NCBI GenBank assembly: GCA_030280995.1
Contig: JASXTE010000008.1
Coordinates: 19,832,133-19,896,132 of the forward strand
Source: Hemileia vastatrix
Lineage: Eukaryota > Basidiomycota > Pucciniomycetes > Pucciniales > Zaghouaniaceae
Direction of reading: 5' to 3'
Length of the DNA: 64,000 bases
Positions 16,675 to 43,799 of the stretch are shown piece after piece (the stretch's first letter is position 1; each line of letters begins with the position of its first letter). The notes beneath the pieces were generated by a model. The model saw only the letters and a list, made by a program, of their open reading frames with translations. It was not told where the DNA came from and did no database searches. A program made the translations under genes and the position numbers.

Positions 16675-17185
16675 TTCATGGTTGAGTTGGGTATATTTTT
16701 TTTTCATACCTTTTTAATGGTGTGGAAAGAAATCAACAGAAGTAAAAATAAGCATTAAAAATCTTAAGTCAAACCCAAACCGGTAAACCTATGTTCAATG
16801 GCTTACATTTTGGCATCCTCATCTTCCACTTAATAGGGGGTATCAATGTTGACCGATCCGCAATTAAATTAATTGCGGATAAAAATCCTTATACCCCAAT
16901 TATCTTCCGCAATTATTTTTGCTAATAATTGGGTTATTAGACACTTTACGTGTCAATGTTCACCTCTTATCCGACATTTATTTACTCAATTTTCCATAAC
17001 CACATCTTGGACAACTTTCTGGATATCCCAGCCTTCTACCTTGCTGCGCACTTCCATTCTCATCCCATCCTGTTCATTCTATCCGCTCAGAATTTCTCCC
17101 CATTTCATCTATTTGATTCTTCTCCTTTTCATCTCGCTATCTCATCTGCTTGTTTCTGCTCCTTTTCATCTTCATTTATAATAAC

Positions 17186-18583
17186 ATGCCTCGTCATTCT
17201 AGATCTTCTCAAAGGCAGCCATCACCCAGTTGTTCTTCAATTCCCACTACTTCCTCTTTTCCCCGCTCAGCCAAGAAATCAAAGACTGTTCAATTAAAAA
17301 AAGATGATCATCTCATTCTTATCAACTGGCTGAAAACCAAATCTAACTATGATTCTTGTTTTGGTACTGAGTATGCCACTAAAGTAGGACGGCCCCCCAC
17401 ATCAAAAGTTAATGGCTATCTTCTAATGGCAAATGAATTACGCAATAAGACCAAGGGAAGGATTGATCTTTTGCCTAAACAGATGTCTGAACGCTTCAAG
17501 CATTATCGAGCAAAATACAAGAAGGCAAAGGCTCTTTCATCTTCCACTGGTTTTGGGGTTACTGACATTGATATAACTAAGGGTATAAAATCCATAGACA
17601 ATAAACTTGATTCTTTATGTCCTTACTTTAAAGAGATGGATGCAATTTTTGGAGAGCGAGCCGATGTTAATCCTGTAAACATGTTGGATGGAGAAGATCC
17701 TATCTCCGAACATGATGTCGAAGCAAATCTTTTCCCATCCTCTTCCTCTACTCAAGCCTCCCCTCTTCTAAATTCTACGAATCTAGATAGCTTTGCTATT
17801 GATCCTATGGGCGATTTAACCCAACCCAATCTAACTCAGGTCTGTTTCTTTTATCTTATCAATTCTATTTTTTTATTTACTTATATTTTTCTTATTTCTT
17901 AAAAGGCTGATGAACAAACCCAGGATCCTCAATCAACTGAGTCTGAAGCTAGTGACAATGATGAGGAGGAAAATGCTACGTTGAACAAAAAGAGAAGGGC
18001 TTCAACTAGTCTAAATTTCCTCTCCCAAAGAAGACGAAAAAGTGATACTTCATCACAAACACCTTTTTCTTCGATGGAACAGTTTTTAGAGAAACGTGAT
18101 GCTGGTAAGTGATATCATACCTCTTATTACTTTACTCTGCTTTTCTTCTACTTTATGTTAATTTTTATTCTCACTCTAGAACAAGTGGAAATTGCTAAAG
18201 AGACACTGAGCTTTGAAAAGAAGAAATACGAGCTCTCTTTAAGGAGGGATGACAGAGTACAAGATTTGGAAGAGAGGAAGTATGAGCTCTCCTTACGGAA
18301 GAATGATCGGATCCAAGATTTGGAGGAGAAGAAGTTTGAGCTCTCTTTACAGAAGGATCGTAGGGCCCAAGATTTGGAGGAGAAGAAGTTTGAGTTAACT
18401 CTTAGTATTGAAAAATCCAAAAATAAGGAAAAAACACTCGAGCATCAAAACTTAATGGAACAGATGAAGTATAAGCATGATCTCCAAGAAAGTTCTAAAA
18501 AGAAAGATTTCTTGATCGAATGCATTAAAGCAAACAAATCTGTTGAAGAAATAGAACGTTTAATGAAATTTTTTGTTGACTAG
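17186..18583 (+). CDS. SANT/trihelix DNA-binding protein with coiled-coil repeats (Harbinger accessory protein)
   Basis: Three exons (17186-17839, 17906-18104, 18180-18583) join to a 418-residue frame; the introns are 66 and 75 bp with GT..AG ends. The chosen ATG opens MPRHSRSSQRQ. Residues about 35-150 form a Myb/SANT-like helical domain of the kind seen in the second protein of Harbinger elements (INWLKTKSNYDSCFG, MSERFKHYRAKYKKAK, STGFGVTDIDI, CPYFKEMDAIFG). A Ser-rich linker and an acidic stretch with a basic KKRR cluster follow. The C-terminal third is a charged coiled coil built from three ~19-residue repeats (ELSLRRDDRVQDLEERKY and variants). In known Harbinger systems this partner brings the transposase to the element ends in the nucleus; that role here is inferred. 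Confidence 0.82.
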
Positions 18584-18719
18584 TTTCTTTTATTTCTTTC
18601 ACACTTCATGTGTTCATATTTATTTGTACATAAATTTTACAATTATTTTCTGTATTTCTTGAAATATCGTATTTTAATGTTAAATATTCTTTTTTTAAAT
18701 AAAATTTTCAAGTCTCCTT

Positions 18720-19135
18720 TGAAAATTTGACAATCCCCCACCCCTGGATTTTTTTGAAGTAAGGGGTGGGTATCACAAAAATTCTTTCATGTCATGAATC
18801 TTGAAAGTTTTATATGAAAATTTGGCTTTACTACCCCCTGCATTTTCCCGGTATCCTAAAAATTCTTACATGTCAAGAATTTCACAAGTCTTATAAAAAA
18901 TTTTGGCACAACCCCCCATGGATTTTATTGAAGTAAGGGACGGGTATCACAAAAATATTTACAAGTCAAAAAAATTCTATATCTGTTTAAAAAAATTGGC
19001 AATACTCTCCCCTGCATTTTATTGAAGCAAGGGGTGGGTATCACCAAAATTTTTCTAAGTCATCAATTTCACATGTCAGATTTGAAAATTTGGCAATACC
19101 CCCCCCTGCATTTTATTGAAGTAAGGGGTGGAAGT
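18720..19135. repeat. ~96-bp tandem repeat between convergent genes of H1
   Basis: About four units each contain an accccc..tgcattttattgaagtaaggggtggg core followed by tatcacaaaaat..tca-agt. The accccc and ggggtgg parts within a unit can pair as a small hairpin. It lies between the 3' ends of the SANT and Tet-like genes, where it may separate or end convergent transcripts. H2 holds the same array at 28780-29190. Confidence 0.7.
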
Positions 19136-19431
19136 CATCTAAATTTAATATAATTACATAAATTATTAAATAAATATCTAATATATATCAATTTCCCTAG
19201 TTTAATGTAATGACAATCCCTCAAGCCAAAATGCAGACCAAGTCGAGAAACATAAGTTTGGGACTTTCTACAGGTATAGGAAAGAGGAACCCCATGAAAC
19301 AAATAAATGTTATCATGATTACCTGTTATACAACACAAGGTCGATGGCTCATCACATTATTTGAGAAAATTGATATATAAAAAATATTTATTAAAAATTT
19401 ATGAAAAAATATAAAATTTTCGATGACAACT

Positions 19432-20774
19432 CTAATCCCCATACTTTTTGGATCTAGATAAAGTTTTTTTAAATCGAATAACTTTACCTTCTTTCTTTAC
19501 CTTATTGATTCTTTGTATCAACTTATTACTGATTTGAAATGAGCAACCAAAATGAGTGAAATCTTGACAGGATTTCAAACCAGGAGGAGCTTTGGTCGTT
19601 TGATGATTATCCTTAGAAGAATTCCAAATAGTTTCGATGATACCATTTCCCAAACCAAAATCAATGATGCACCGGTGGTCTGGAAAATATAAACCATGTC
19701 CTTTGATTTTAGCTGGAGATGGTATTGGGTGGCCAGTTATCGGATTGATATATGAGAATATTCCAAAAGTAAGAAAATTGGCATCATTTCTATCGATATG
19801 AATCCTATTGTGAAATCCAGAATGAGTGATAATAACATTAGAAAATAAAAGATATTCGTGGCTGATATCTTCCCATTCAGAGTCACACCAATTCGGTATT
19901 CCAACTTTGGTTGCAAGGTCATGATTTTTTTCAAATGCCTTATTACAGAGCTTTTTGAGTCGAAGAGCAAGAAAAGAATTAAAGTAGGGTAGAGTGTCCC
20001 ATAAGCGAAAATCTTCATCTTTTTGTGCTTTAGTGATATTATTGAGCAATGAATATATACCTATATAATTGAAATAATTAAAATGATATTAAGAATGGAA
20101 CAAAAATTATTAGACATACCAAGAGAATATCCTTTGACAAAACCAGGTCTCCAACCAAAACCAATCATGATACCACCCAACAAATTCTTATTCCTTATAG
20201 GTAATCGAACCAAAGCCATTTGATAAAGAGTTATGATAAGATCGGATAGTTGATTAAAAGCTTCATCTTTTACACCATCGAATGAATGAACTTCCAAAAT
20301 GAATTGAGGCTTAAAAGCATTGCTGATAACTGCAACAACTCGATCATCTCCAAATTCTGTTAGATATTTGATATCTTCTGGTAATTTTTTCGGATATTGA
20401 TTTTTTTTATCTACTTTAGTTTTATAAAAAAAAATGTTTGGGATATGACGAAAATAACTTTCGCAGAGAGACTTTTTTTTTAAATATCTTTTCTTCTGAT
20501 GAGACTGATTATCTTTAATTTTTTTTGATGATTTAGAAGATGATTGTATGGAAGTTGATTTCAAAGAAGATGATAGAGTTGATTTCAAAGAAGATGATAG
20601 AGATGATAAAGATGAAGATGATAAAGAAGATAAATTTATTTTTGATGATTTAGAAGAAGATTGTATGGATCTTGATTTTGAAGAAGATGATAGTGATGAT
20701 AAAGATGAAGATGATAAAGAAGATAAAGATGAAGATGAGAGAGAAGTAAGGGGTGAATCTGAAGAAGAAGACAT
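19432..20774 (-). CDS. Tet-like 2OG-Fe(II) dioxygenase carried by Harbinger H1
   Basis: Exon 1 (20774-20120) and exon 2 (20060-19432) are split by a 59-bp intron (GTATGT..ATATAG) and give 427 residues. The first ~100 residues are low-complexity Ser/Lys-rich (repeated SSLSSSS). The rest matches what I remember of the rust Tet-like 2OG-Fe(II) oxygenase family (Pfam 2OG-FeII_Oxy_6 type): FHNRIHIDRNDAN contains the HxD iron ligands (His306, Asp308), then FGIFSYINPITG, LYFPDHRCIIDFG, and IIETIWNSSKDNHQT with the second His (His371), ending THFGCSFQIS. The related TET/JBP enzymes oxidise methylated cytosine or thymine in DNA. The position where this family usually has the 2-oxoglutarate-binding Arg (TRFG) reads His388, so activity is uncertain. 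The gene lies between the transposon ends and shares strand with the transposase. Confidence 0.78.
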
Positions 20775-20779
20775 TTTTT

Positions 20780-21424
20780 TGATCTGAAAAAAAATTAAAT
20801 GTCAATAAAATTTCAACTCAATTTTTTTTAAAAAAAAATCTCACCTTATTTTTCAAATAAAAAAACTGTTTTTTATTTAAAAATTAAAATAGAAAAAAAA
20901 ACAAAAAAAAAAATAACAAAAAACAAAAAATGAGTAAAAAATTTTCCAAAAAAAAATTTTATTAAAAAAAAAACCTGAGGTTTTATTTTTAAAAAGAAAA
21001 TAAAAGCAAAATCCTTAAAAAAAAAAAAATTTATCCAAAAAAAAAAATTTCAGTAAAAATTAAATCACAAAAAAAAAAAATAAAAAAAAAAATTAAAAAA
21101 AAAATTAAAAGTGAACCTGAAGATTGGTTATTAAAAACCTTCTCACAAGATCCTGAAAAAAAAAAAAAAAATCAGTAAAATCAAAATCAAAAATAAAAAA
21201 ATTATTTAAATAAAATCAAAATCACAAAAATTAATTATAGAAAAATTAAATATAAAATTATAAACCTTTTTTGTATTGTAAATAAGAGGGACAGTCCTTA
21301 TCAGCAAAAAAATATTTTTTTTTTCTATATTACTGCAAAAAAAATAAAAAAAAAAATCAAAATTACAAACAAAAATTTGTTAGTATCTTTATTTGAAAGT
21401 TAGTAACCCATCTTTATCTCCCAT
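20780..21424. other. A-rich non-coding stretch in H1
   Basis: This is mostly long A runs on the plus strand, with no gene. It probably forms the 5' flank and promoter of the Tet-like gene on the minus strand. The matching region of H2 is 30800-31320. Confidence 0.6.
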
Positions 21425-22440
21425 TAAAGTCCCCTTTTCCCCCTCAAATGCTCTCCTTGCCTGCCTCAAAATCCCCCTGAAATACCCCCCTTTCACCCCT
21501 CTTTAGGTCCCTCATCACCCTTCTTTCCCCACTCATTAGCTGCCTCAAACCCCCCCCCCCCATTCCCCCCTCTTTAGCTCCCTCAAACCCCCCCATTCCC
21601 CTCACCTTAGGCGCCTCAAACCCCCCCCCATTCCCCCCTCTTTAGCTCCCTCAAACCCCCCCATTCCCCTCACCTTAGGCGCCTCAAACCCCCCCCATTC
21701 CCCTCTCCTTAGGCGCCTCAAACCCCCACCCTTCCCCTCTCCTTAGGCACCTCAAACCCCCCCCATTCCCCTCTCCTTAGGTACCTCAAACCCCCCCCTT
21801 CCAATCTCCTTACCCCCTCCCAAACCCTTTCCCCAACACCCACCCCCCCCCCTGTTTATTAACGAACGATCTATAACGATCGTTCGTTAAGTAATCGAAT
21901 CGCTAACGATTCGATTACTTAGCGAACGATGGTTACATATCGTTCGTTAAGTAATCGAATCGCTAACGATTCGATTACTTAGCGAACGATGGTTACAAAT
22001 CGTTCGCTAAGTAATCGAATCGTTAGCGATTCGATTACTTAACGAACGATCTGTAACGATCGTTCGTTAATAAACTGGGGGGGGGGGGTAGAGGAGGATA
22101 TAATGTGATTAGGTAGGGGGGGAAGGGGGGGTGTTTGAGGCGCCTAAAGAGAGGGAAAGGGGGGGTTTGATGTGGGTAAAGAGAGGTGAAGGGGGGGGGG
22201 TTTGAGGCGCCAAAAGAGAGGTGAAGGGGGGGTTTGAGGGACATAAAGAGAGGGGAAGGGGGGTGTATTGAAGCACCTAAAAAGAGGGGAAAGGGGGTGA
22301 TGAGGGACCTAAAGAGGGGGGAAAGGGGGGATTTGAGGCAGCTAAAAAGGGGGTAAAAAGGGGGTCAGAGACAGGTAAAGAGAGGGAAAAAGGGGGGCCT
22401 TGAGGATGATAAAGAGAGGTGAAGGAGAGAAAAAAAAACA
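21425..22440. repeat. ~1-kb inverted structure: C-rich arm, CpG-rich palindromic array, G-rich arm
   Basis: The left arm (21425-21853) has tandem C-rich units of about 40 bp (ttaggcgcctcaaaccccccc). The right arm (22076-22440) has G-rich units that are its reverse complement in style (gggggtttgaggcgcc). The core (21854-22075) is a palindrome built from a 60-bp repeat, with the phrase cgttcgttaa or cgttcgctaa at exactly 21881, 21941, 22001 and 22061; each unit (taagtaatcgaatcgctaac..) is itself self-complementary. The core contains many CpG sites (cgaacgatcgttcg). It can fold into a very large hairpin, and the arms can form G-quadruplexes. Confidence 0.88.
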
Positions 22441-22541
22441 AAAAAATAAAAAGATAAAAAAGATAAAAAAGCAAAACAAAAATTAGTTTACCCTAGAACA
22501 AAAATAATAGAAGCACTTACAAAAAAAACAAAAAAAAAGCA

Positions 22542-22572
<31 letters not shown>

Positions 22573-22922
22573 AATCATGATTAGCAAATAAAAAACCATG
22601 AAAAAAGAAAAAAAATGACCTACCTGGTGAGCTGAGTTGAGAAAATAAATGCAACCAAAATATTTGAGGGATGTTTGAGGAGAATAGGAAAAGGATATGA
22701 GTGATGAATGAAAAAAAAAATCACTGACAAAATATGCGATATAAGAAAATATGCGATTTTATGTTGAGGAAGTGAAAGAAAACCAATGAGCCATCCAAAA
22801 AAAAGATATTCACCGTAAATTCAAAAAAAAAAATGAATATGCAACAAACCAAAATACAAAACCAAGTGATTAAAGTACACAAAGAGGACAATTGGAAAGT
22901 ATGAAAACATAAAAATTAAAAA
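22441..22922. other. A-rich 3' flank of the H1 transposase gene
   Basis: This AT-rich stretch has no open frame of note and runs of A such as aaaaaaaaagc. It sits downstream of the transposase stop codon. Confidence 0.5.
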
Positions 22923-24182
22923 TTAAAAGGGTGAAGAGAAATGTTGAAGAGTAATTGGCATTATAATGGGGCGTATGCCGGTTGATTGAATGATTTGTGA
23001 ATCAAGGGAGGGGAGTGCCAGTGGTGGTTCAGGATCCTCTTCTTCATAAAGATCATTCCACTCATCCTTTAAATCAGCTAGAATATTGTGGAGTATTACG
23101 CAAGTCAAGATCCAATGATTTGCAGTTTTGATCTCCAATTTTTTTTGAAATTGGATTCTGAGCTCCCGAAGACTAGAAAATCGTCCCTTTAAAATACCTA
23201 TAGCATGTTCAATTCGTACTCTTGATTGTGCAAGGTGATAATTAAATTTAGTTTTGGGGTCATTTTCTGAAGTTGCACCACGGAAAGCAGGTATAATGTA
23301 CTTTCCACTTGCATATGCTGAGTCTGCAAGGAGGTACTGAGATTCGTCAAAGTATGATTCAGGGGATTGAGAAATCCTCATTCTTTGGAAGACGGAAGAG
23401 TCATGACATGATCCAGGGCAGCCACTGTGAAAAGCAATAAATTTTTTATTGACATCGCATACAAGTTGAACGGCAATAGAGTATCTAGAAAGAAGATTAA
23501 AAGTTAGATTGTGAAAGATGAGAACTTGGAGAAGATTTTGAAGAAACCTTTTTTTGCGATCAAAATAATGGTTGCCATCATGAGCAGGCTTTTGACTCAA
23601 AGGGATGGTTGTGCCATCAACAAAACCTATACAGCCAGGGAAACCTTCAGCTTGCATTACTTGAGAGGATTCAAGTCGCTGTTCTGGAGTTGGCCAAGCA
23701 AGAGTTTGAGACTTGAGGGAAAGGATAGAAATCATACAGCGCTTGGTGTATAATATCACGGTACCATATCCTATGTTAAAGAGATTATCCAAACGTCTTA
23801 CGGCAGCACCATTTCCATTTGAGCCAAAGCGACATAGAGCAACAGCAAGTTGGATGGCAGGATTACGCTGTTTGTTATGAGAATTGTTATGGAAGATAGG
23901 ATGATTGGAGATGAGTTGATAAAGTTTGAAGAAAGAATCGGGAGAAGTTCTAAAAAGTTGTGTGAAGTTTAAATGAGGAATGTTGAGAATGGAGGCCAGA
24001 TCATATCGGGGATCATGATAAAGATTTGGCCCCCTGGTGATGATGTAACGCTTTTTGGAAAGAAAACACATATAAGCTAAAGCATCTTCCAAATCAGAGT
24101 CAGATTTATAGTAAAGAACTAAAAGAAAAGTGATAGCATTCATTGTTGAGTGAAGTAGATTCCTAGTAGAGAGGTGTTTCAT
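22923..24182 (-). CDS. PIF/Harbinger DDE transposase (DDE_Tnp_4 type) of H1
   Basis: The first ATG after the open upstream sequence is at 24182. A 63-bp intron (23547-23485; GTTTCT start, CTAAC branch site, CTAG end) is probably removed, giving 398 residues; unspliced, the frame stays open (419 residues) because the intron is a multiple of three without a stop. The catalytic triad is visible: FVDGTTIPLSQ (Asp189), LLADSAYASGKYIIPAF (Asp266) and RIEHAIGILKGRF (Glu304) in spliced numbering. Other family motifs are GNHYFDRKKR-YSIAVQLVCD and GCPGSCHDSSVF. The enzyme would excise and insert the element in the nucleus. Length and motif order fit an intact enzyme. Confidence 0.85.
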   Translation of the reverse strand: MKHLSTRNLLHSTMNAITFLLVLYYKSDSDLEDALAYMCFLSKKRYIITRGPNLYHDPRYDLASILNIPHLNFTQLFRTSPDSFFKLYQLISNHPIFHNNSHNKQRNPAIQLAVALCRFGSNGNGAAVRRLDNLFNIGYGTVILYTKRCMISILSLKSQTLAWPTPEQRLESSQVMQAEGFPGCIGFVDGTTIPLSQKPAHDGNHYFDRKKRFLQNLLQVLIFHNLTFNLLSRYSIAVQLVCDVNKKFIAFHSGCPGSCHDSSVFQRMRISQSPESYFDESQYLLADSAYASGKYIIPAFRGATSENDPKTKFNYHLAQSRVRIEHAIGILKGRFSSLRELRIQFQKKLEIKTANHWILTCVILHNILADLKDEWNDLYEEEDPEPPLALPSLDSQIIQSTGIRPIIMPITLQHFSSPF

Positions 24183-24603
24183 TGTTGCCGGTGGAAGGGT
24201 TATGTGATGAGGGAAGTGGGAATTCACCGCCAAATGTGCAGTTGGGGTGTGTAGATAGAAAAAAAACTTAAGTGTTCGCCACCAAAATTAAGTAGCATAG
24301 AGTGAGGAAATACTTAAGGATGGCATCAGCAATTATAAGTCATGTGACTTTCTTATAAATCCATCATGGATGAGATGAGTTTGGGATCAGGAATTAGGAA
24401 TGGAAATTGGGGTATAAGAGGCGGGATAATGCATTATCGTGGATTTCTTATCCACTAGCCCTGGGGCTAGTGGATAAGAATCTTCCGCAATTAATAATGT
24501 CTGATCCCGGGAAAAAAAATTCCTGATCCCTAATTGCGGATCCCTGAACATTGATACCCCCTAATAACACTATGAACAAGGTAAAATATTGCTGATGGGG
24601 TTA

Positions 24604-26767: not shown

Positions 26768-27263
26768 CCACTTTTCTAAACCCAGATAAAGAATGCAATA
26801 CACTAATTTTAACATAATACTAGGGGGTATCAATGTTCAGGGATCTGCAATTAAGTTAATTGCGGAAAATAATCTGCATACACCAATTATCTTCCACAAT
26901 TATTTTTGCTAATAATTGGGTTATTAGACACTTTATGTGTCAATGTTCACCTCTTATCTGAAATTTTTTTAGTCAATTTTTCATAACCACATCTTGGACA
27001 ACTTTCTGTCATAACCACATCTTGACCTACTTTCTGGCATAACCACATCTTGGACTACTCTCTGGATATGACTTCTACCTTGCTGCACACTCACATTCTC
27101 ATCCCATCCTGTCCATTCTATCCACTCAGAACCCCTCATCATCTCATCTGCTTGTTTCTGCTTCTTTTCATCTCGCTATCTCATATGCTTGTTTCTGCTC
27201 CTTTTCATCTCTCTATCTCATCTGCTAGTTTCTGCTCCTTTTCATCTTAATTTATATTTTAAC

Positions 27264-28614
27264 ATGCCTCATCTTCCTAGATCTTCTCAAAGGCAGCCAT
27301 CACCCAGTTGTTCTTCAAATCCTACTACTCCCTCTTTCCCCCGCTCAGCCGAGAAATCTAAGACCGTTCAATTAAAAAAAGATGATCATCTCCTTCTTAT
27401 CAACTGGCTGAAAACCAAATCTAACTATGATTCTTGTTTTGGTACTGAGTATGCGACTAAAGTAGGACAGCCCCCAGCATCAAAATTTAATTGCTATCTT
27501 CTAATGGAAAATGAATTACGGAATAAGACCAAGGGAAGGATTGATCTTTTACCTAAGCAGATGTCTGAACGCTTCAACCACTACCAAGCCAAATACAAGA
27601 AGGCAAAGGCTCTTTCATCTTCCACTGGCTTTGGGGTTACCGACATTGATATCACTAAGGGCATCAAATCCATATATGATAAACTTGAATCTTTATGTCC
27701 TTACTTTAAAGAGATGGATGCAATTTTTGGAGAGAAAGCTGATGTTAATCCTGTAAACATTTTGGATGGAGAAGATCCTATCTCCAAACATGATGTTGAA
27801 ATAAATCTTTTCCCATCCTCTTCCTCCACTCAAGCCTCCCCTCATTTGAATGAGACCAATCTAGATAGCTTTTCTGTAGATCCTATTGGCAATTTAACCC
27901 AACCAAATCTAACTCAGGTCTGTTTCTTTTTTCTTTTATCTTATCAATTCTATTTTTTAATTTACTTATCTTTTTCTTATTTCTTAAAAGGCTGACAAAT
28001 AAACCCAGGATCCTCAATCAACTGAGTCTGAAGGTAGCAACAGTGATGAGGAGGAAAATATGATCTTGAACAAGAAGCGTAGGGCTTCAAGTAGTCTAAA
28101 TTTCCACTCCCAAAGAAGACAAAAAAGTGATACTTCATCACAAACCCCTTTTTTGTCTATGTAAATTTTTTTAAAGAAGCATGATTCTGGTAAGTGATAC
28201 CATACCTCTTATTAATTTACTCTGCTTTTCTTCAACTTTATGTTAATTTTTATTATCACTCTAGAACAAGTGAGAATCACTAAAGAGACTCTAAGCTTTG
28301 AAAAGAAGAAATACAAGCTCTCTTTAAGGAGGGATGATAGGCTACAAGATTTGGAAGAGAGGAAGTATGAGCTCTCTTTACGGAAGGATGATTGGGCCCA
28401 AGATTTGGAGGAGAAGAAGTTTGAGCTAACTCTAAGTATTGAAAAATTAAAAAAAGAGGAGAAAACACTCGAACATCAAAACCTATTAGAGCAGATAAAA
28501 TATAAGTTTGATCATGAAGAAAATTCCAAAAAGAAAGATTTCTTGATCAAATGTGTTAAAGCTAATAAATCAGTTGAGGAAATTACACGTTCAAAGAAAT
28601 TGTTTGATGACTAG
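27264..28614 (+). pseudogene. SANT/coiled-coil gene of H2, broken
   Basis: Exon 1 (27264-27917) is open and the same length as in H1, with the SANT-like motifs kept (INWLKTKSNYDSCFG, CPYFKEMDAIFG). Exon 2 starts at 27991 and meets TAA at 28000-28002, with a second TAA near 28162. The coiled-coil exon (from about 28265) is open but has two rather than three of the ~19-residue ELSLRxDD repeats. The product would stop just after the Ser-rich linker. Confidence 0.82.
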
Positions 28615-28779
28615 TTTGTTTTATTACTCTCACACTTCAACTGTTCATATTTATTTGTACATAAAATTTCCAATAATTTCATGTATTTCATTACTCTATC
28701 AATCATTACTTGAATTTTTGTATTTTAATGTTAAATATTCTTTTTTTAAATATAATTTTCATGTCTCCTTTGAAAATTT

Positions 28780-29190
28780 GACGATCCCCCACCCCTGGAT
28801 TTTTTTGAAGTAAGGGGTGGGTATCACCAAAATTCTTTCATGTCATGAATTTTGAAAGTCTTATATCAAACTTTGGCTTTACTACCCGCTGAATTTTACC
28901 GGTATTTCCAAAATTCTTACAAGTCAAGAATTCCACAAGTCTTATAAGAAATTTTGGCAATACCCCCCTTGATTTTATTGAAGTAAGGGACGGGTATCAC
29001 CAAATTTTTTTCACCAAAATATTTGCAAGTCAAAAATTTTACATGTTACATTTGAAAATTGTGAAATACCCCCCCTACATTTTATTGAATCAAGGGGTGG
29101 GTATCACCAAAATTTTTACAAGTCTTCAATTTTGAATGTCATATTTGAAAATTTGGCAATACCCCCCCTGTGCATTTTATTGAAGTAAGG
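28780..29190. repeat. ~96-bp tandem repeat of H2
   Basis: About four units of accccc..gaagtaaggggtgggtatcacc, orthologous to the array at 18720-19135 in H1 and likewise placed between convergent genes. Confidence 0.68.
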
Positions 29191-29496
29191 GGTGGAAGTC
29201 ATCTAAATTTAATATAATTACATAAATTATTAAATAAATATCTAATATATATCAATTTCCCTAGTTTAAATTAATAACAATTCCTCAAGCCAAAATGCAG
29301 ATCAAATCTAGAAACAAAAGTTTGGGACTTTCCACAGATATAGGCTAGAGGAATCCCATGAAAAAAAATAAATGTTATCATGATTACCAGTTATACAACC
29401 AAAGGTCATTGGCCCATTACTTTAGTTGAGGAAATTGATATATAAAAAATATTTATTAAAAATTTATGAAAAAATATAAAATATTTGATGACAACT

Positions 29497-30797
29497 CTAA
29501 TCCCCATACTTTTTGGATCTAGATAAAGTTTTTTTAAATTGATTAACTTTACCTTCTTTCTTTACCTTGTTGATGCATTGAATAAACTTATGACTGATTT
29601 GAAATAAGCAGCCAAAATGTGTCAAATCTTGACAGGATTCCAAACCAGGAGGAGTTTTGGTTGTTTGATGATTATCCTGAGAAGAATTCCAAATAGTCTC
29701 AATGATACCATTTCCCAAACCAAAATCAATGATGCACCGTTGGTCTGGAAAATATAAACCATGTCCTTTGATTTTTGCTGGAGATGGTATTGGTTGGCCA
29801 GTTATCAGATTGATATATGAGAATATACCAAAAGTAAGAAAATTGGCGTCATTCCTATCGATATGAATCCTATTGAGGAATCCAGAATGAGTGATAATAA
29901 CATTAGAAAATAAAAGATATTTGTGGCTGATATCTTATAATTCAGAGTCACACCAATTTGGTATTCCAACTTTGCTTGCAAGCTCATGATTTTTTTCAAA
30001 TGCTTTATTAAAGATCTTTTTGAGTAGAAGAGCAAGAAAAGAGTTAAAGGAAGGTAGAGTGTCCCATAAACAAAAATCTTCATCTTTTTGAGCTTTAGTG
30101 ATATTCTTGAGCAATGAATATATGCCTATATAATTGAAATAAGTGAAATGATATTAAGAATAGAACAAAAATTATTAGAAATACCAAGAGAATATCCTTT
30201 AAAAAAACCAGGTCTCCAACCAAATCCAATCATGATACCACCCAAAATATTTGTATTCCTTATAGGTAACCAAACCAAAGCCATTTGATAAAGAGTTATG
30301 ATAAGATTAGATAGTTGATTAAAAGATTCATCTTTTACACCATTGAATGAATGAACTTCCAGAATGAATTGAGCCTTAAAAGTATTACTGATAACTGCAA
30401 CAACTTGATCATCTCCAAATTTGGTTGGATATTTGATATCTTCTGGTAATTTTTTCGGATATTGAATTTTTTTTATCTACTTTAGTTTTATAAAAAAAAT
30501 GTTTGGGATATGACGAAAAAAACTTTCGCAGAGAATTTTTTTTTTCAGATATCTTTTCTTCGGATGAGACTGATTATCTTTAATTTTTTTTTTGATGATT
30601 TAGAGAATGATTTTATTTTTCAGATATCTTTTCTTCTGATGAGACTGATTATCAATAAATTTTTTTGATGATTCAAAAGATGATTGTATTGAAGTTTATT
30701 TTGAAGAAGATGATAGAGATGATAAAGATGAAGTTGATAAAGAGGATAAAGATGAATATGATAGAGAAGTAAGGGGTGAATCTGAAGAAGAAGACAT
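29497..30797 (-). pseudogene. Tet-like 2OG-Fe(II) dioxygenase gene of H2, broken
   Basis: It aligns with the H1 gene over both exons. Exon 2 keeps the iron ligands (LNRIHIDRNDAN and DNHQT) and the SYINLITGQPIPSPAKIKG stretch, and like H1 has His in THFGC. It carries a TAA near 29937 where H1 reads GAA (Glu). Exon 1 keeps the Ser-rich start from ATG 30797, but a duplicated QSHQKKRYLKKK-like segment and frameshifts disrupt it. It cannot make a full enzyme. Its presence shows the dioxygenase gene was part of the family before H1 and H2 separated. Confidence 0.82.
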
Positions 30798-30799
30798 TT

Positions 30800-31319
30800 T
30801 TTTGATCTGAAAAAAAACTTAAATTTCAAAAAAAAATTCAACAAATTTTTAAAAAAAAAACCCACCTAATAATATCTTTTGAAATAAAATTTAAAGAAAA
30901 ATCCTTTTAAAGAAATATTAAAAAAATTTTTTTAAAACATAAAGAAAAAAAAAATTTCAGTAAAAATTCTTTCAAAAAAAAAATTCAAATGAAAACATGA
31001 AGTTTGGTTATAAAAAATCTTCACAGAAAATCCTGACATAAAAATTTTAAAAAAAATAAAAAAAATAAAAAAAATTCAGTAAAAGAAAAATCAAAACAAA
31101 AAATTAAAAAAAAAAATTATATTCAGTAAAATTATTTGGAAGAAAAACTAAAAATTAAAATCTAAACCTTTTTTGTTTTGTAATTAACAGCGAAAGTCCT
31201 TCACAGAATGTAAAAGATATTTTTTTTCTAAAATTCTGCCAAAAAAAAAAAAAAATTTACAACAAAAAATTTTTAGTATTTTTTTTAGAAAGTAGGTAAC
31301 CCCTATTTAGCTCCCATAA
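30800..31319. other. A-rich non-coding stretch in H2
   Basis: Counterpart of 20780-21424 in H1, dominated by A runs on the plus strand; no gene. Confidence 0.55.
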
Positions 31320-31960
31320 AAGTCCCCTTCCCCCCATTTATTTCTCTTAAATCCCCTATAAAATCCCTCCCTCCTTGCCTCAAAACCCCCCTCAAATCCC
31401 CTCCTTGCCTGCCTCAAAATCCCCCTGAATCCCCCTCCTTATTTGCCTCAAAACCCCCCCAAACTCCCCCCTTTATCCCTCTTTATATGTCCCAAACCCC
31501 CCCTTTCCCCCCCTCTTTAGCCGCCTCAAAGCCCCCCCTTTTAGGTCCCCTCCCCCCCTTCCACTCCCCTTAAACCACCTCTACCCCCCCCCTCTTTCTT
31601 AACAAACAATCAGTAACGATTGTTCATTAAGAAGGAGGGGGGGTAGAGGCAGATTAAGGGGAGTGGAAGGGGGGGGGTTTGAGGTGGCTAAAGAGAGGAG
31701 AAGGGGGGAGGGTTGAGGCACCTAAAGAGAGGGGAAGGGGGGGTCATGAGGTGCCTAAAGAGAGGGGAAGGGGGGTCACGAGGCACCTAAAGAGGGGGGA
31801 AAGGGGGGATTTGGGACAGGTAAAGAGGGTGAAATAAGGGGGACTTGAGGAAGGTAAAGAGAGGGGAGAAGGAGTGACTTGAGGCAGGTAAAGAGAGAGG
31901 AAAAGGGGTGAAATGAGGCAGTTAAAGAGGGTGAAGGAGTGAAGAAAAAAGAAAAAAAAG
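31320..31960. repeat. C-rich/G-rich inverted structure of H2
   Basis: A C-rich arm (31320-31595) and a G-rich arm (31630-31960) flank a short core (ttcttaacaaacaatcagtaacgattgttcattaag). The inner ~60 bp on each side (ccactccccttaaaccacct against its inverse) pair almost perfectly. The 60-bp CpG-rich palindromic array of H1 is reduced here to a single short hairpin. Confidence 0.82.
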
Positions 31961-31984
31961 AGAAAAAAGAGAAAAAAGAGAAAA

Positions 31985-33487
31985 TGTCAGCCTGTATATC
32001 TCCAGGACTGAGTAAAAAGTAACTATAAGTTATGTTAAACACATGAACTATACATGGGAATAATAAATAAGAGTACACAAATAGTATACATAAGTAAAAT
32101 TATGATAATACACAAAAAAATGCCATTATAACACCTTATATACACACATATATCCACCTTTTATAGGTCTTATGTACTTAATATTAAGTTGGAATATGTT
32201 AGGGTAATCTTAAGAATCTTAAGTATAAGGCTGCACAATTTTTAAGTACACTTAAAGCTGTTATATTCATTGTTTTATGCAAAAAACAAGAAATGCGCTT
32301 TATTTCACTTAAAAGTTGACTATATGCACTATAAAATTGAGAATATCAAAATTGCGCTTTGACAGATCAATTGGGCTCATTTAGAACTATTGATTTGGCT
32401 ATTTAAATGCATAAAAATAACACTTTTCAAATTTGGTGTTTTTTATGCCAGAAATGGCTTCTGTGTACTGGCCACATACTGCCTGCTTTTTTCCCGTGTG
32501 AATAGCTTCATTTTTAGCAAAGTTAGCTTTTTCACACTATAATTACCCCACATTCTACGCCCACTGTGGGGAAACACACTAAAATAGGCGACAGGCGCTT
32601 ATTTAGTGTCCTAGCTTAATTAATAATGCATTGACCCTGTTTATATGCACTAATTTCATTAATAACCTCACTCTTGGCACTTTATTTCATCACCACGCTT
32701 AAATTCGCCTAATTTTAGTCAAGGATTTACCCGTGCAAGCGCCTGCCAAGGACTGCATGTAGTTACCCCACATCTCACGCTCTTTTTTAAGTTTTTGGGT
32801 GGTTTCTCAGTTAATTTTGGTTATTTTTGAATGGGAATTTCACGTAGTATAATGTCAGGATTAGCCCCATTATTTCTACAGTCAATCCCCCTTATTATTA
32901 AGCTATTATTAACCTTAAAAAAGTCTCCTTTAGTCCTTAATATTATTGTTTTATACGCATATACTCTCTTTTTGTCTTTTTCTTTAATTTTGATGGATTT
33001 CCCTTATTATTTCAGGATTTTGGCGGTTATTACTCTTCTAATTATGTCATGGGTTACTGGGAATGTTGATGGGCATGTTTATTAGTTGTTTAGAGGCGTC
33101 ATTAACTGTGTATTGGGTGGTACATCAAGGGAATCATTGGGGAACTTAGTGTGTATAAAAGGAGGAGGTTTTTGGGTTGTATTTCTTCATTCTTTATCAT
33201 TACAATTTAACCAATATAACCAATCCAATTACAATACATATCAATTAGTACTTTTATAAGACTTTTGAATAGTATCTGAATTTATATAATCTATTTTTCT
33301 ACCAACTATAAAGATTGTAAGCCATATATAAGAATAGTGAGAATTATATTACTGAGACCTTTATATTTGATTATATTTTACAACTTAGTGGATTAGAACT
33401 ACAGTATTCATATAGGACCATTAAAATCTTCTAGACAACTGACTATTCAAGCTAGTTCACGTCCTTGTACTTGACCTTAGCCTGACA
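31985..33487 (+). repeat. 5' LTR of gypsy G1 (1503 bp)
   Basis: It starts TGTCAGCCTG and ends CCTGACA, so the ends are inverted repeats. A TATA box sits at 33154-33160. It contains an 84-codon hydrophobic open frame (32831-33085), judged fortuitous. Just inside the LTR, ttggggacctttcc (33489-33502) is the probable primer-binding site; I cannot name the tRNA. Confidence 0.92.
33154..33160 (+). promoter_or_regulatory. TATA box of the G1 5' LTR
   Basis: The sequence gtgtataaaaggagg lies about 330 bp before the LTR end and marks the likely U3/R border region. The same box is at 41382-41388 in the 3' LTR, from which transcription would run towards, and antisense to, the H2 transposase remains. 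Confidence 0.6.
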
Positions 33488-34157
33488 ATTGGGGACCTTT
33501 CCTCAAGAATTCTGTTATAATCCTGTAAGTGAAATTTTCAAGAGAAGGTGCACATAAATAATATCCCTATAGAAATATTTGGATAATTACAACAGGTTGG
33601 GGTCACTTATATAGTGATTTCAGAAAAAGAAGCCCTGTTATATTATAAAATTGTGATATTGAATCAACAATTTTACCACTAATTTAACTTATAATTGTTA
33701 TTAGTGGGTCTGTCAATAGACCAATTAAATTTGAGATCTTTGCAGATAAAATTTTTTACCACTAATTTAACATATAATTGTTCTTAGTGGGAGTCTGTTA
33801 ATAGACCAATTAAATTTGTGATCTTTGCAGATAATAAACCAATTAAAACTGATTAATTGTTTTCTTTTAACAGGACTCTTAATCTTTTCTTTTATTGGTT
33901 TGTAAAATTCATTAAATATTTAGAAAGAATCATACTGACAGTTGTTTTCTTTTGAATATAAAAACACGGCTACATATTGTAGAACAGTTAAATCAAGTGA
34001 CCACATAAAAGCATATTTGACTTTTGGCACTTAAATATTCACTTCATACCAATAAGTAAGCAATAAAATTGTCTTCAGTGGTATTGATAAATACTGATAA
34101 AACTCCTTTTTGAAGTTTTCATATCTAAACTTTCAATTCTTTAAATTCCACGTAAAA
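33488..34157 (+). other. G1 leader with an ~87-bp tandem duplication
   Basis: The untranslated leader carries two direct copies (about 33672-33757 and 33758-33840) of taccactaatttaac.tataattgtt.ttagtggg..agaccaattaaattt.. Each copy can form a small hairpin (accactaat with attagtgg). A packaging or translation-control role is possible but not shown. Confidence 0.5.
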
Positions 34158-37100
34158 ATGTGTGACAACAATGACATTGTAAGTAATAAGGTAAAACCTT
34201 ATAACTTAAGACCTAGAGCTGAAAGACCTGTTACAGGACATTCAAATGGAGGGCCAGGACTCTCCCATAATCAACAACACTCCGTCAATGTCTCTGGAGG
34301 AAAGGGAAAAGCTTTTAAAGCAGGTTTCAATAAAGAAAACAAAAAATACTTTACAAGAACAAGTTCACTCCCTATCCACCCTACTGAACACCTTGACAAT
34401 AAGAGTCAACAATATAGTGGACCAGATCAACAATCTGGAAAAGAGAGCAGCTCAAGGTTTCATAGAAGTCAACCAAGCTCTAGTGGACATAAAGACTCAA
34501 CCACCAACAGTGGCACCCAACAATTCCATAGCAACACCTCCAGCCCAAGAGGAGGACCAAAAAATTACAGTAAGCAAATGGAAATGGGATTGGTACGCCC
34601 AAAACTACAACAATCCTCAACAGCAGGGCTCCAGCAGTCACCCTTACAGGGGAAAGGCAAGGAGAGGCAGGGGAAGTGGGATAAGACCTTGGTAAGTCAT
34701 CCAACTTCTTATGATCAATTATATCAACCTGAAAATAAATTACTTATAGGTAATGAGATTGATAAGGAAATATTGGATATTATTGATAAGGATTTAAAGG
34801 ATTATTCATTTGAACAGAATATGTTAAACTTGTCTTTACATGAGGACAATGTAAATAGTTTTATTGATCACCAGAAAAATACTATTAATATAAAAATGGA
34901 ATCAAATGAATTAAATCTTGACCCTGATAATGAGTCTTCTGCATTGGACACGGAAAAAATAGAATATTTTTTAAAAGAGAATCCAATGGAATCAAAAATA
35001 ATAAGTAAATTATTATTGAGAATTGAAAAATTGGAAGAGTTCTCAAAAGAGTCAAACATTAATACAGAAAATGTATTATTACAACTAACACAATCATTGA
35101 GTACCACAGCCAATAAATTAAAAATTATTGAAAATTCAAATAATGAATTAATCAATGAGAATAAAAGATTAAAATCTGAGATTAGAAATTTAGAAAGTAA
35201 ATTAGAACACTCTCAGAATATTATGGCTACCATAGAGGGACGTGTAAAATTGTCTTTTTCAAATGTAAATGATACTTTAACTCATGTACCTGTAATAAAA
35301 GATAGGTTACAGAGAGTAGAAATTGAAGTAGCTAACATTTTGAAAAATACTGAAACAATAAAGGATAATACCTCTTATGTAGAGAGAGTACCAGTTTTTA
35401 TGAAACACTCTGATGATAAACCAATGATTGAACATGAACATAGTGTTATGGGCTCTGAGAATATAAAATCAGTAAAAGATGAAATAAATGATCATCTTTC
35501 TAAAGTAAGTGAATTACTCAATATTCCTCAGGTTAGGGAAGCAAAAACTAGCCAAAAGAACTGGCCTAAGTTAGATCAGTACCCTTCTTTTGACGGGGAT
35601 TCAAAATCTGATTGGCAACAATTCATACAAAGAATTGATAACTTAAAATTTTCATACAAATTACCTGATGAAGAAATTACTTCAAAGTTAATATCTTTAT
35701 TTACAGATGTGGCCTTATTATGGTTTGAATCTGTATTGAGTGAGGGAATTAATTACTCCTGGAATGAATGGAAGGCACTAATTGAAAGGCAATTTGGTGG
35801 CCCAAAATTTAGAATCACTCAACAAAGACTGTATGAAAAGGCCAGATATAATCCAAATGCTGGAGATAAACCCATGGTCTTCTTAATGAATTTAATAAAA
35901 ATCATGAAAGCTATGGATCCAAAAATGGATTATGAAGAGTGGAAAGAAAAAATAATATACAAATTGCCTATATCAGTTAGAGACATTATTGTTGCTAGAA
36001 CTGAAACTGTCAGAGACACCTCTGGATTCATTAATATATGCAATGAGATATTATTAAACCACAAATATGAAACCAAGTATAGTAATTACAGACAAAGTGT
36101 TGACGTGGTAAAACCTACTACAAGTAAGTTACCAGTGGAAAAGAAAAAACCTTCAGCTCCCCTTGTCCCTAAGAGACAAGAAAATAACACTTGTTACAAA
36201 TGTAATGAGCCTTGGGTTAAAGGTCACACGTGTAAGAAAAGAATAAATGTTATTGAAACCTCACAGAATTCTGAACCTAGTAATCATGAAGATGAGAATG
36301 TGGAATCCAGTGAGGATTGCAAGAGTAACATATCTTACAGTGATGATGAAAATGAGATATTTGTATTAGAACAGGATATAATGTTCCTGAATGATGCTAT
36401 ACCTCATACAGACACATCTTTAACTTCTATAGAGGAAGCTGAAATAATTAAAGATGTATCTCATGATACTTACAAAATAACACCTATCAGAGCACCTATT
36501 ATCATATGTGGAAAAGAAATGAATGCCATTCTTGACACTGGGGCTGCAGGTAGTGTAGTTTCACTTAATGCATTAATGAAACTTGATAGTAAGTACCAGG
36601 AAAAACTAGAACCTGTTCAGACAAAGAACTGGAGGGGTTTTGGTTCAGTATTAAATCCAATTGGCAAATACAAAACTGCTGTATTCTTTAAATATAATAA
36701 TGGATATGTTAGAGCAGTTTGTGAATTTGTAGTAATGGATAATAATAATTGTAGTGATTGGTTTATTATTGGCAATGATTTATTGACAAAATTTGGCATT
36801 AAACTAGATCCTGCAAACAGTTGTTTCACCATAGGGGTGAATGGTAAAAGAAAATTCAAAATATGTTCTGAAAATTCAGTATATACCATTTCTCCTAGAG
36901 AAGAACAACTGCAAGGTGGAAGAACCACCAATGAAGTGGGTGAATTGGAAAATGAAATCCAAAAGGCCTCTTTCAGTCCTCAACTCTCAAAAATTGAACA
37001 AGAAGATATTTTGAGATTGATTAAATCATATCCTATGGCATTTGCTCATGGCTCAAATGAACTAGGATTGGTCAAAGACCATGAGATGAAAATCTCTTTA

Positions 37101-40031: not shown

Positions 40032-40212
40032 ATTTCTGTTCAACCAGCTGAGGGGTTAAAAAACCAGTACTCATAATATTTTATTATGTTTTATTTCTTT
40101 AAAGTTGAATCTTTAATGCTACAGATTTATTCTGAACACCTGAAAATTACAAATTAAATAAAATAAAATGTATAACTTATCATTTTTTTTATTGTTTTTT
40201 TGGGTGGGCGAG
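40032..40212 (+). other. G1 3' untranslated region and polypurine tract
   Basis: An AT-rich stretch ending ttttttgggtgggcgag directly before the 3' LTR; the G-rich end is the polypurine tract. Confidence 0.75.
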
Positions 40213-41715
40213 TGTCAGCCTGTATATCTCCAGGACTGAGTAAAAAGTAACTATAAGTTATGTTAAACACATGAACTATACATGGGAATAATAAATAAGA
40301 GTACACAAATAGTATACATAAGTAAAATTATGATAATACACAAAAAAATGCCATTATAACACCTTATATACACGCATATATCCACCTTTTATAGGTCTTA
40401 TGTACTTAATATTAAGTTGGAATATGTTAGGGTAATCTTAAGAATCTTAAGTATAAGGCTGCACAATTTTTAAGTACACTTAAAGCTGTTATATTCATTG
40501 TTTTATGCAAAAAACAAGAAATGCGCTTTATTTCACTTAAAAGTTGACTATATGCGCTATAAAATTGAGAATATCAAAATTGCGCTTTGACAGATCAATT
40601 GGGCTCATTTAGAACTATTGATTTGGCTATTTAAATGCATAAAAATAACACTTTTCAAATTTGGTGTTTTTTATGCCAGAAATGGCTTCTGTGTACTGGC
40701 CACATACTGCCTGCTTTTTTCCCGTGTGAATAGCTTCATTTTTAGCAAAGTTAGCTTTTTCACACTATAATTACCCCACATTCTACGCCCACTGTGGGGA
40801 AACACACTAAAATAGGCGACAGGCACTTATTTAGTGTCCTAGCTTAATTAATAATGCATTGACCCTGTTTATATGCACTAATTTCATTAATAACCTCACT
40901 CTTGGCACTTTATTTCATCACCACGCTTAAATTCGCCTAATTTTAGTCAAGGATTTACCCGTGCAAGCGCCTGCCAAGGACTGCATGTAGTTACCCCACA
41001 TCTCACGCTCTTTTTTAAGTTTTTGGGTGGTTTCTCAGTTAATTTTGGTTATTTTTGAATGGGAATTTCACGTAGTATAATGTCAGGATTAGCCCCATTA
41101 TTTCTACAGTCAATCCCCCTTATTATTAAGCTATTATTAACCTTAAAAAAGTCTCCTTTAGTCCTTAATATTATTGTTTTATACGCATATACTCTCTTTT
41201 TGTCTTTTTCTTTAATTTTGATGGATTTCCCTTATTATTTCAGGATTTTGGCGGTTATTACTCTTCTAATTATGTCATGGGTTACTGGGAATGTTGATGG
41301 GCATGTTTATTAGTTGTTTAGAGGCGTCATTAACTGTGTATTGGGTGGTACATCAAGGGAATCATTGGGGAACTTAGTGTGTATAAAAGGAGGAGGTTTT
41401 TGGGTTGTATTTCTTCATTCTTTATCATTACAATTTAACCAATATAACCAATCCAATTACAATACATATCAATTAGTACTTTTATAAGACTTTTGAATAG
41501 TATCTGAATTTATATAATCTATTTTTCTACCAACTATAAAGATTGTAAGCCATATATAAGAATAGTGAGAATTATATTACTGAGACCTTTATATTTGATT
41601 ATATTTTACAACTTAGTGGATTAGAAATACAGTATTCATATAGGACCATTAAAATCTTCTAGACAACTGACTATTCAAGCTAGTTCACATCCTTGTACTT
41701 GACCTTAGCCTGACA
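40213..41715 (+). repeat. 3' LTR of gypsy G1 (1503 bp)
   Basis: Same length as the 5' LTR. Differences I can see include cacgca for cacaca near 40372, tgcgct for tgcact near 40556, and gcactt for gcgctt near 40824. It is followed by GAAAA. Confidence 0.92.
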
Positions 41716-42133
41716 GAAAAAAAACAAAATTAGTCTAACCTTGAAAATAAAAAAAAAGGACTTACAAAAAAAAACAAAATAAAGCAAAATAAAAAAATTC
41801 ATGATTAGAAAATAAAAAACAAGAAAAAAGAAAAAAAAAGACTTACCTGGTGAGACGAGTTGAGAAAATAAAAGTAACCAAAATATTTGAGTGATGTTTG
41901 AGGAGAGGATGAAAAGGATATGAGTGATGAATGAAAAAAAAATCACTGACAAAATATGGGATTTCAGAAAATATGTGATTTCATGTTGAGCTGGTGAAAG
42001 AAAACCAATGAGCCATCAAAAAAAAAGATATTTACCGCAAATTCAAAAAAAAATGAATAAGCAACAAACCAAAATACCAAACTAAGTGAATAAATTACAC
42101 AAAGAGGACATTTGGAGAGTACAAAAAAATAAT

Positions 42134-43395: not shown

Positions 43396-43799
43396 AGTTG
43401 CCGGTGGAAGGGTTATCTGATGAGGGAAGTGGGAATTCACCCCCAAATGTGCAGTTGGGGTGTGTAGATAGAAAAACAACTTAAGTGTTCTCCACCAAAA
43501 TTAAGTAGCATAGAGTGAGGAAAGACTTATGGATGGCATCAGAAATTATGAGTCATGTGACTTTCTTGCAAATCCATCATGGATGAGATGAGTTTGGGAT
43601 TGGGAATTAGGAATATAAATTGGGGTATAAGAGGTGGGATAATGAATTATCATGGATTAATTATCCACTAGCCCTTGGGCTAGTGAATAAGAATCTTCCA
43701 CAATTAATAATGTCTGATCCCAGGAAAAAAAATTCCTGATCCCTAATTGCGGATCCCTGAACATTGATACCCCCTATTATATAATCCCATTCTTTAATA

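What the first reader, a model, noticed from the sequence alone, without database searches (positions are those of the whole stretch)
16835..24562. A Harbinger-type DNA transposon that carries a Tet-like dioxygenase gene as a third gene
Seen: a 7.7-kb element with matching inverted ends and an AAT duplication holds intact SANT/coiled-coil, Tet-like oxygenase (HxD..H motifs) and DDE transposase genes. Known: TET/JBP genes in fungi have been linked to a different transposon superfamily (KDZ), and Harbinger elements usually have two genes. Inference: the enzyme could remove or rewrite DNA methylation on the element, countering host silencing, and such elements could be the vehicle that spread Tet-like genes in rust genomes. 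To my knowledge this combination is not widely described.
Basis: partly seen in the sequence, partly recalled or inferred. Interest (0 to 1): 0.88.

Follow-up and report, generated by a model that had tools for sequence, protein, structure and literature searches.

The report
Three-gene Harbinger transposon carrying Tet-like enzyme
This is a jumping gene of a large-genome fungus, probably a rust, that carries its own Tet-like enzyme, probably to undo the DNA marks that silence it; elements of this general kind are already in print, and this one is a distinct and very abundant version.

Summary
Window 16835-24562 is a complete Harbinger-type DNA transposon: 32-bp inverted ends (29 identical), a 3-bp AAT duplication supported by empty sites, and three open genes: a weakly Myb/SANT-like protein, a spliced 427-aa Tet-like 2OG-Fe(II) oxygenase (PF20515, E 2.6e-37) and a DDE transposase (PF13359, E 8.5e-31). 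The oxygenase gene is not a nested accident: a second three-gene copy lies in this window, and 53 of the 150 listed transposase places have a listed oxygenase exon at the same spacing and strand. Some copies hold only exon 2, or none.
The combination is already in print: Kojima 2025 (PMC12730594) reports TET-carrying Harbinger ("PHISTA"). This family differs in its 3-bp AWT duplication (PHISTA: TA) and perhaps in a Myb/SANT-like partner.
New here: oxygenase exon 2 evolves under constraint (omega 0.07-0.31 in 9 of 11 pairs); young copies differ by C-to-T 58 times more often at CpG, and 16 of 17 exon-2 stops are CGA to TGA; a second Harbinger family captured and multiplied the exon-2 module. Anti-silencing is likeliest but inferred. 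Interest 0.5.

The parts
16832..16834 (.). target-site duplication AAT, left
   Evidence: empty sites with one AAT; 20 of 26 end-pairs with identical 3-bp flanks
16835..16866 (+). left terminal inverted repeat, 32 bp, 29 identical to the right one
   Evidence: 12-mer count 16,674 vs 17 control
16835..24562 (.). whole transposon, 7,728 bp
17186..18583 (+). gene 1: 418-aa protein, inferred exons 17186-17839, 17906-18104, 18180-18583; N-terminal Myb/SANT-like region, C-terminal 18-residue repeats
   Evidence: splicing by script; Myb_DNA-bind_4 E 9.4e-4, below cut-off; 54-bp tandem repeat
18741..19145 (.). array of diverged ~94-bp repeats between gene 1 and gene 2
19432..20774 (-). gene 2: Tet-like 2OG-Fe(II) oxygenase, 427 aa, inferred exons 20774-20120 and 20060-19432; H306, D308, H371
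   Evidence: (PF20515 residues 176-376, E 2.6e-37)
21436..22430 (.). long inverted repeat of C-rich and G-rich ~33-bp units between genes 2 and 3; core 21859-22070 has 30 CpG in 212 bp
   Evidence: other cores in L013, L009, L027
22923..24182 (-). gene 3: DDE transposase, 398 aa, inferred exons 24182-23548 and 23484-22923 (63-bp intron, also open in frame)
   Evidence: PF13359 full length, E 8.5e-31
24531..24562 (-). right terminal inverted repeat, 32 bp
24563..24565 (.). target-site duplication AAT, right
26822..43775 (.). second three-gene copy in the same window (gene 1 from 27264, oxygenase 30578-29500, transposase 43395-42143), decayed, with an LTR retrotransposon between oxygenase and transposase; its 3-bp flanks (ACT, ATT) differ
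47560..50240 (.). non-autonomous relative with the same ends, ATT duplication and no match to the three proteins

Best explanation
An autonomous PIF/Harbinger-type transposon. The transposase and a Myb/SANT-like partner bind the ends, cut and paste the element and make a 3-bp AWT duplication (anatomy and duplication shown; chemistry inferred from the family). The third gene encodes a Tet-like 2OG-Fe(II) oxygenase that most likely oxidises 5-methylcytosine on the element's own DNA, so that its genes can be expressed and its ends used despite host CpG methylation (inferred). Host C-to-T change at CpG, the expected trace of methylation, steadily destroys copies, the oxygenase gene included, so the lineage persists by making new copies (inferred from the mutation pattern). 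The middle of the element is a region where sequence gets replaced, so the oxygenase is lost in some copies and can be captured by other elements (replacement and one capture shown; the process inferred).
For: Profile matches and open frames; HxD..H kept: HID in 85 of 90 and distal H in 89 of 90 exon-2 copies. Same order and spacing: 53 of 150 listed transposase places have a listed exon-2 place 3.6-4.3 kb downstream on the same strand, 0 in another geometry within 8 kb; 12 of 14 exact exon-1 tags on contig C2 have an exact transposase tag 2.9-3.65 kb upstream. Constraint on exon 2 against the window copy: omega 0.12-0.31 for L010, L011, L013, L014, L015, L016, L030 and the second window copy, each with upper 95% limit of 0.66 or less. 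CpG decay 128/1780 vs 21/16910 at other C/G; 16 of 17 stop codons are CGA to TGA. Tags: 2,692 transposase, 1,569 exon-1, 3,857 exon-2, controls 0.
Against: No expression, methylation or enzyme data. Young TET-carrying copies are still mutated at CpG, so any protection is incomplete. 5 of 10 full-size copies lack exon 1 or the whole gene, so not every copy needs it in cis. By my count of the listed rows, 32 of 150 oxygenase exon-2 places carry a stop against 1 of 150 transposase first-exon places (both lists are capped by score, so not a fair comparison). In 90 near-identical copies shared and single variants did not differ in N/S (12/10 vs 61/27, p 0.21). L009-L027 exon 2 gave omega 1.17; window copy against L009 0.50 and L027 0.42. 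Only 17 of 90 exact exon-2 tags on C2 have an exact transposase tag upstream; 2 lie on the wrong side and 2 on the opposite strand. No solved TET structure was matched by sequence, and both structure models were too poor to use.
Confidence: 0.6

Rival explanations
1. Passenger: the oxygenase gene is cargo picked up in a part of the element where sequence is freely exchanged, and has no role in its life.
For: The middle is replaced in L010, L011, L014, L016 (exon 2 only) and in L029 (no oxygenase; its aligned ends with the other two genes 98-99% identical to the window copy). A piece was carried off by a second family. Young-copy frequency test not significant.
Against: Omega 0.07-0.31 in 9 of 11 pairs with the window copy; GT/AG splice sites in 29 of 29 best-matching copies and no stop over residues 86-427 in 25 of 29; the same arrangement in many copies.
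Confidence: 0.2
2. The enzyme writes rather than erases: a lasting base modification (5hmC or a further modified base, as JBP or CMD1 do) that marks the element's DNA for its own proteins or for transcription control.
For: The protein is distant from characterised TETs (no PDB sequence match); Kojima 2025 raises the same option; CpG decay goes on in TET-carrying copies.
Against: No partner modifying enzyme was recognised among the element's three genes; otherwise nothing here distinguishes the two.
Confidence: 0.15
3. A host oxygenase gene or another transposon lies inside the element by chance (nested insertion).
For: Nesting occurs here: the second copy in the window holds an LTR element.
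Against: Same order, strand and spacing in 53 pairs; also in copies whose oxygenase matches only at about 56-62% over long tblastn stretches that include intron and frame breaks (L009, L015, L027) and in a second copy in this window.
Confidence: 0.02

Closest known systems
TET-carrying PHISTA (Harbinger superfamily), Kojima 2025, PMC12730594
   Same: Harbinger-related DDE transposase, a TET/JBP-type gene and a third protein, in rust fungi.
   Different: PHISTA is reported with TA duplications and a third protein without Myb/SANT; here the duplication is 3 bp (AWT) and the third protein has a weak Myb/SANT-like match. Section 3.1.4 names five Puccinia species and Austropuccinia psidii as hosts. 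The ends here could be misread as a TA duplication (AW[TA]GGGGG...CCCCC[TA]WT), so whether PHISTA really differs should be rechecked. Its sequences are in a supplement I could not open.
Canonical Harbinger / Nuwa elements
   Same: Two-gene core of transposase plus Myb/SANT-type protein, 3-bp duplication.
   Different: Nuwa families encode two proteins and no oxygenase (as stated in Kojima 2025, section 3.1.4).
KDZ transposons with TET/JBP (Iyer et al. 2014; recalled and as cited in Kojima 2025, paper not held)
   Same: Fungal DNA transposon with a TET/JBP-type gene.
   Different: Other transposase: here the matches are DDE_Tnp_4, then DDE_Tnp_1 and Plant_tran, and no KDZ-type family is listed.

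Membership tests
PIF/Harbinger superfamily | DDE transposase of the DDE_Tnp_4 type | tested here: met
   PF13359 E 8.5e-31, full profile
PIF/Harbinger superfamily | terminal inverted repeats and 3-bp target duplication | tested here: met
   29 of 32 bp; 20 of 26 end-pairs; empty sites at 3 places
PIF/Harbinger superfamily | second protein with Myb/SANT domain | tested here: inconclusive
   Myb_DNA-bind_4 best E 8e-4, first member 20 bits vs cut-off 27, 3 of 4 members; whole protein no Myb hit; model pLDDT 40.5; no PDB match
PHISTA (Kojima 2025) | TA dinucleotide duplication | tested here: not met
   3-bp AWT
PHISTA (Kojima 2025) | TET/JBP-type gene beside a Harbinger transposase | tested here: met
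PHISTA (Kojima 2025) | transposase falls in the PHISTA clade | not testable with these tools
   reference sequences are in a supplement; 0 supplement look-ups allowed
Tet-like 2OG-Fe(II) oxygenases (PF20515) | profile match over cut-off with HxD..H | tested here: met
   129 bits vs 27; H306/D308/H371 (assigned by motif, not by structure)
Tet_JBP proper | match to the older Tet_JBP Pfam profile | tested here: not met
   only PF20515 listed at E<=10
TET dioxygenase | oxidation of 5-methylcytosine | not testable with these tools
   needs an enzyme assay

The most novel reading that the evidence does not exclude
A lineage of canonical 3-bp Harbinger elements, distinct from PHISTA, keeps a Tet-like eraser under selection while host CpG methylation and mutation are the main way that same gene is knocked out (CGA to TGA stops, Asp to Asn at the iron site). 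The eraser module moves between Harbinger families in one genome, so the arms race can be read directly from thousands of copies.
Probability: 0.35. Interest if true: 0.75.

Novelty: new variant of a known kind. Interest (0 to 1): 0.5.

Why it matters
Thousands of copies, with and without an intact Tet-like gene, in one genome make a natural experiment on whether a transposon-borne eraser counters methylation. The published account that I read (Kojima 2025, named sections) argues from reading frames and trees; here there is a measured mutational trace, as expected of CpG methylation, on the same copies, a measured constraint on exon 2, and a case of transfer between two Harbinger families.

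Tried and rejected
Structure prediction of oxygenase exon 2 alone and of gene-1 exon 1 gave mean pLDDT 36.8 and 40.5; no fold search was run. Spliced proteins were not sent to the predictor because its rule bars them. The protein homologue search scored 740 candidates, none at E<=0.001. PDB sequence searches gave no oxygenase or Myb match. NCBIfam gave nothing relevant for the oxygenase or gene-1 exon 1. Rfam: no match in the window. The frequency test for selection among 90 young exon-2 copies was not significant; an earlier 40-copy version (variants shared by 4 or more 18 N/24 S, single 180 N/66 S) includes poorly aligned old copies and is not relied on. CpG change compared between copies with and without the oxygenase is confounded by age and subfamily and was left undecided. 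From one search's 100 listed places, 13 facing end-pairs 2-20 kb apart exist: 9 were kept, L012 was read and dropped (no gene match, unequal flanks), and 3 (starting C2:1995511, 3899129, 4960135) were never read; L027, whose right end is not an exact match, was added. L028 (no right end in the stretch) was not counted. Chance and nested insertion were rejected.
Full report
What is there. The sequence shows an element at 16835-24562 with inverted ends that agree at 29 of 32 positions and AAT on both sides. Three genes lie inside. Gene 1 (+, 17186-18583, three exons) gives 418 aa. Gene 3 (-, 24182-22923, two exons) gives 398 aa. Exon limits are inferred from GT..AG sites and family likeness; there is no RNA evidence. 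In Pfam, gene 2 hits only PF20515, the Tet-like 2OG-Fe(II) oxygenases (E 2.6e-37), over residues 176-376. Gene 3 hits DDE_Tnp_4 over the full profile (E 8.5e-31), then DDE_Tnp_1 and Plant_tran. Gene 1 as a whole has no hit over a cut-off (SH3_1 at E 0.014), but its isolated N-terminal region hits Myb_DNA-bind_4 at E 9.4e-4, under the curated cut-off; 3 of 4 copies match that family, and the only other family listed is Myb_DNA-bind_3 (E 0.2, one member). I therefore call it Myb/SANT-like, unproven.

Ends and duplication. AGGGGGTATCAA occurs 16,674 times in the 747.6-Mb genome against 17 reversed-control matches. Of 26 end-pairs examined (13 of them short elements under 1 kb), 20 have identical 3-bp flanks; of 22 pairs with AWT on both sides, W agrees in 20 (p 1.2e-4 if independent, match chance set at 0.52), while the next base outwards agrees in 5 of 26. 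A 30-mer made of the two flanks of this insertion with a single AAT was found at 3 places with one mismatch each: two on the same contig 30.5 and 66 kb away, one on another. So the duplication is 3 bp. A TA reading of the same ends is possible on sight but fails these tests.

Does the oxygenase belong? A second copy of the same order lies at 26822-43775, decayed, and split by an LTR retrotransposon with reverse transcriptase and chromodomain. As a sample taken without regard to genes I used facing end-pairs among the 100 places listed, which cover the first 5.2 Mb of contig C2. Of 13 such pairs 2-20 kb apart I read 10 and kept 9: L009, L010, L011, L013, L014, L015, L016, L029 and L030/L031; L012 was dropped (no gene match, unequal flanks) and 3 were not read. 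L027, with one inexact end, makes 10. All 10 match the transposase and gene 1, not always intact. Five match both oxygenase exons (L009, L013, L015, L027, L030), most of them decayed. Four have exon 2 only because window 20075-22510 is replaced by other DNA (L010, L011, L014, L016). One has neither because 18984-22171 is replaced (L029). Genome-wide, the 150 scored exon-2 places (15,064 first-look candidates) and the 150 scored transposase places (15,838 candidates) pair up at 3.6-4.3 kb on the same strand in 53 cases, with no pair in another geometry within 8 kb; both lists are capped, so 53 is a lower bound. On contig C2, 12 of 14 exact exon-1 tags have an exact transposase tag 2.9-3.65 kb upstream; of 90 exact exon-2 tags 17 do, 2 have one on the wrong side and 2 on the opposite strand. 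Tag counts with up to 3 mismatches are 2,692 (transposase), 1,569 (exon 1) and 3,857 (exon 2), controls 0. Tags differ in how conserved they are, so these are rough. The gene-1 tag did not complete.

State of the gene. Of the 29 best-matching oxygenase copies other than the window's own (L034-L062), 25 have no stop over residues 86-427. That alignment hides insertions. In one script 15 of the 30 loci had the gene on the strand read; 11 of these showed the start string and intron, of which 7 gave full proteins of 427-520 aa and 4 were cut short. Length varies in the serine-rich start. In 90 exon-2 copies (the window's included), 76 have no stop, HxD reads HID in 85, HIN in 4 and HFD in 1, and the distal His is kept in 89. 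By my count of the listed rows, stops occur in 32 of 150 exon-2 places and 1 of 150 transposase first-exon places, but the two lists are cut by score at different depths.

Selection. Pairwise omega of exon 2 against the window copy is 0.12 (L013), 0.27 (L010), 0.28 (L014), 0.27 (L011), 0.28 (L016), 0.31 (second window copy), 0.30 (L030), 0.20 (L015), 0.07 (L062, a search hit), 0.50 (L009) and 0.42 (L027); only for L009 does the 95% range pass 1 (upper limit 1.17). L009 against L027 gives 1.17, the second window copy against L030 0.45, and five pairs of exon-2-only copies 0.31-0.44. Transposase and gene 1 give 0.42-2.27 and 0.27-0.69 by the same method, but 5 of 9 transposase pairs have dS below 0.04. 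Among 90 young copies, variants shared by 3 or more are 12 N/10 S against 61 N/27 S for single ones, p 0.21. So long-term constraint is supported; selection among the youngest copies is not shown.

Host defence trace. Among 89 copies at least 98% identical to the window copy in exon 2, C-to-T (or G-to-A) relative to it is 128/1780 at CpG positions and 21/16910 at other C and G, a 58-fold difference. Sixteen of 17 stops are CGA to TGA at two arginine codons, 252 (10 copies) and 414 (6 copies); some of these may be shared by descent. In 8 other full-size copies CpG change is 8-43% against 1.6-11.5% at other C/G. The window copy keeps CpG at 0.51 of expectation against 0.25 for the rest of the window. 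This is what methylation-driven deamination would leave; methylation itself was not measured. TET-carrying copies are not spared.

Transfer. One exon-2 tag without an exact known end nearby was read (L123). There a 2.36-kb piece of the exon-2-only form, 93-95% identical, sits in reverse orientation inside, and in place of the rest of, the transposase gene of a different Harbinger family (57% identical over residues 32-207), whose end begins GGGGGTGTCAGTTCTGG. A 30-mer of that end occurs 8,691 times with up to 2 mismatches, control 0. Of 31 exact tags of it on contig C2, 12 have an exon-2 tag inward within 6 kb, 9 of them at 1,589-1,647 bp on the opposite strand, none outward, against 0.84 expected by chance. 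The tag was taken from L123, so exact matches favour its subfamily. So a second family captured the module and multiplied it. It is exon 2 only; whether it makes an enzyme is unknown.

Other Tet-like genes. PF20515 searched in the genome gave 10,849 first-look candidates; all 150 that were scored are over the cut-off, and 0 of 14 control genomes match.

Literature. Of Kojima 2025 (PMC12730594) I read the abstract and outline, sections 6, 14, 23, 25, 26 and 34 and passages. It reports seven TET-carrying transposon lineages in rusts, including Harbinger 'PHISTA' with TA duplications and a third protein without Myb/SANT, and proposes escape from silencing or from C-to-T hypermutation. Hemileia, Phakopsora, Cronartium and Uromyces are not found in its main text. 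PMC12210899 was seen as passages only, PMC13297926 (a 2026 review of fungal methylation) in a listing only. Iyer et al. 2014 is recalled and not held. In the rows listed by the searches I saw no other paper on a TET-carrying Harbinger.

Verdict. The combination is already in print, but this is a distinct variant, and its copies give evidence that I did not see in the published sections. The anti-silencing role remains the best inference, about 0.6.

Noticed in passing
21859-22070: Core of the long inverted repeat between transposase and oxygenase has 30 CpG in 212 bp (3.9 times expectation) in a CpG-poor window; the L013, L009 and L027 stretches read there hold 4-5 CpG each.
   Followed up: partly
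26822-43775: Second three-gene copy split by an LTR retrotransposon with reverse transcriptase, integrase and chromodomain matches (ORF 34101-40028).
   Followed up: partly
4909-7173: RVT_2 (copia-type) reverse transcriptase reading frame on the minus strand.
   Followed up: no
window 16464, 24844, 25441 (left ends only) and loci L017-L023: Elements of about 190-200 bp, most beginning AGGGGGTATCAAAGTTAGAAAT, share the terminal 12 bp and the AWT duplication; they look like non-autonomous passengers.
   Followed up: partly
47560-50240: A 2.7-kb relative with the same outer sequence and internal repeats but no match to the three proteins.
   Followed up: no
G000, e.g. C121:39680692-39681369: A class of Tet-like genes with nearly the whole PF20515 domain in one open frame; transposon context unread.
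   Followed up: no
C2:19782584 and C2:19818443: Two empty versions of this insertion site lie 66 and 30.5 kb from the insertion, so the flank is itself locally duplicated.
   Followed up: no
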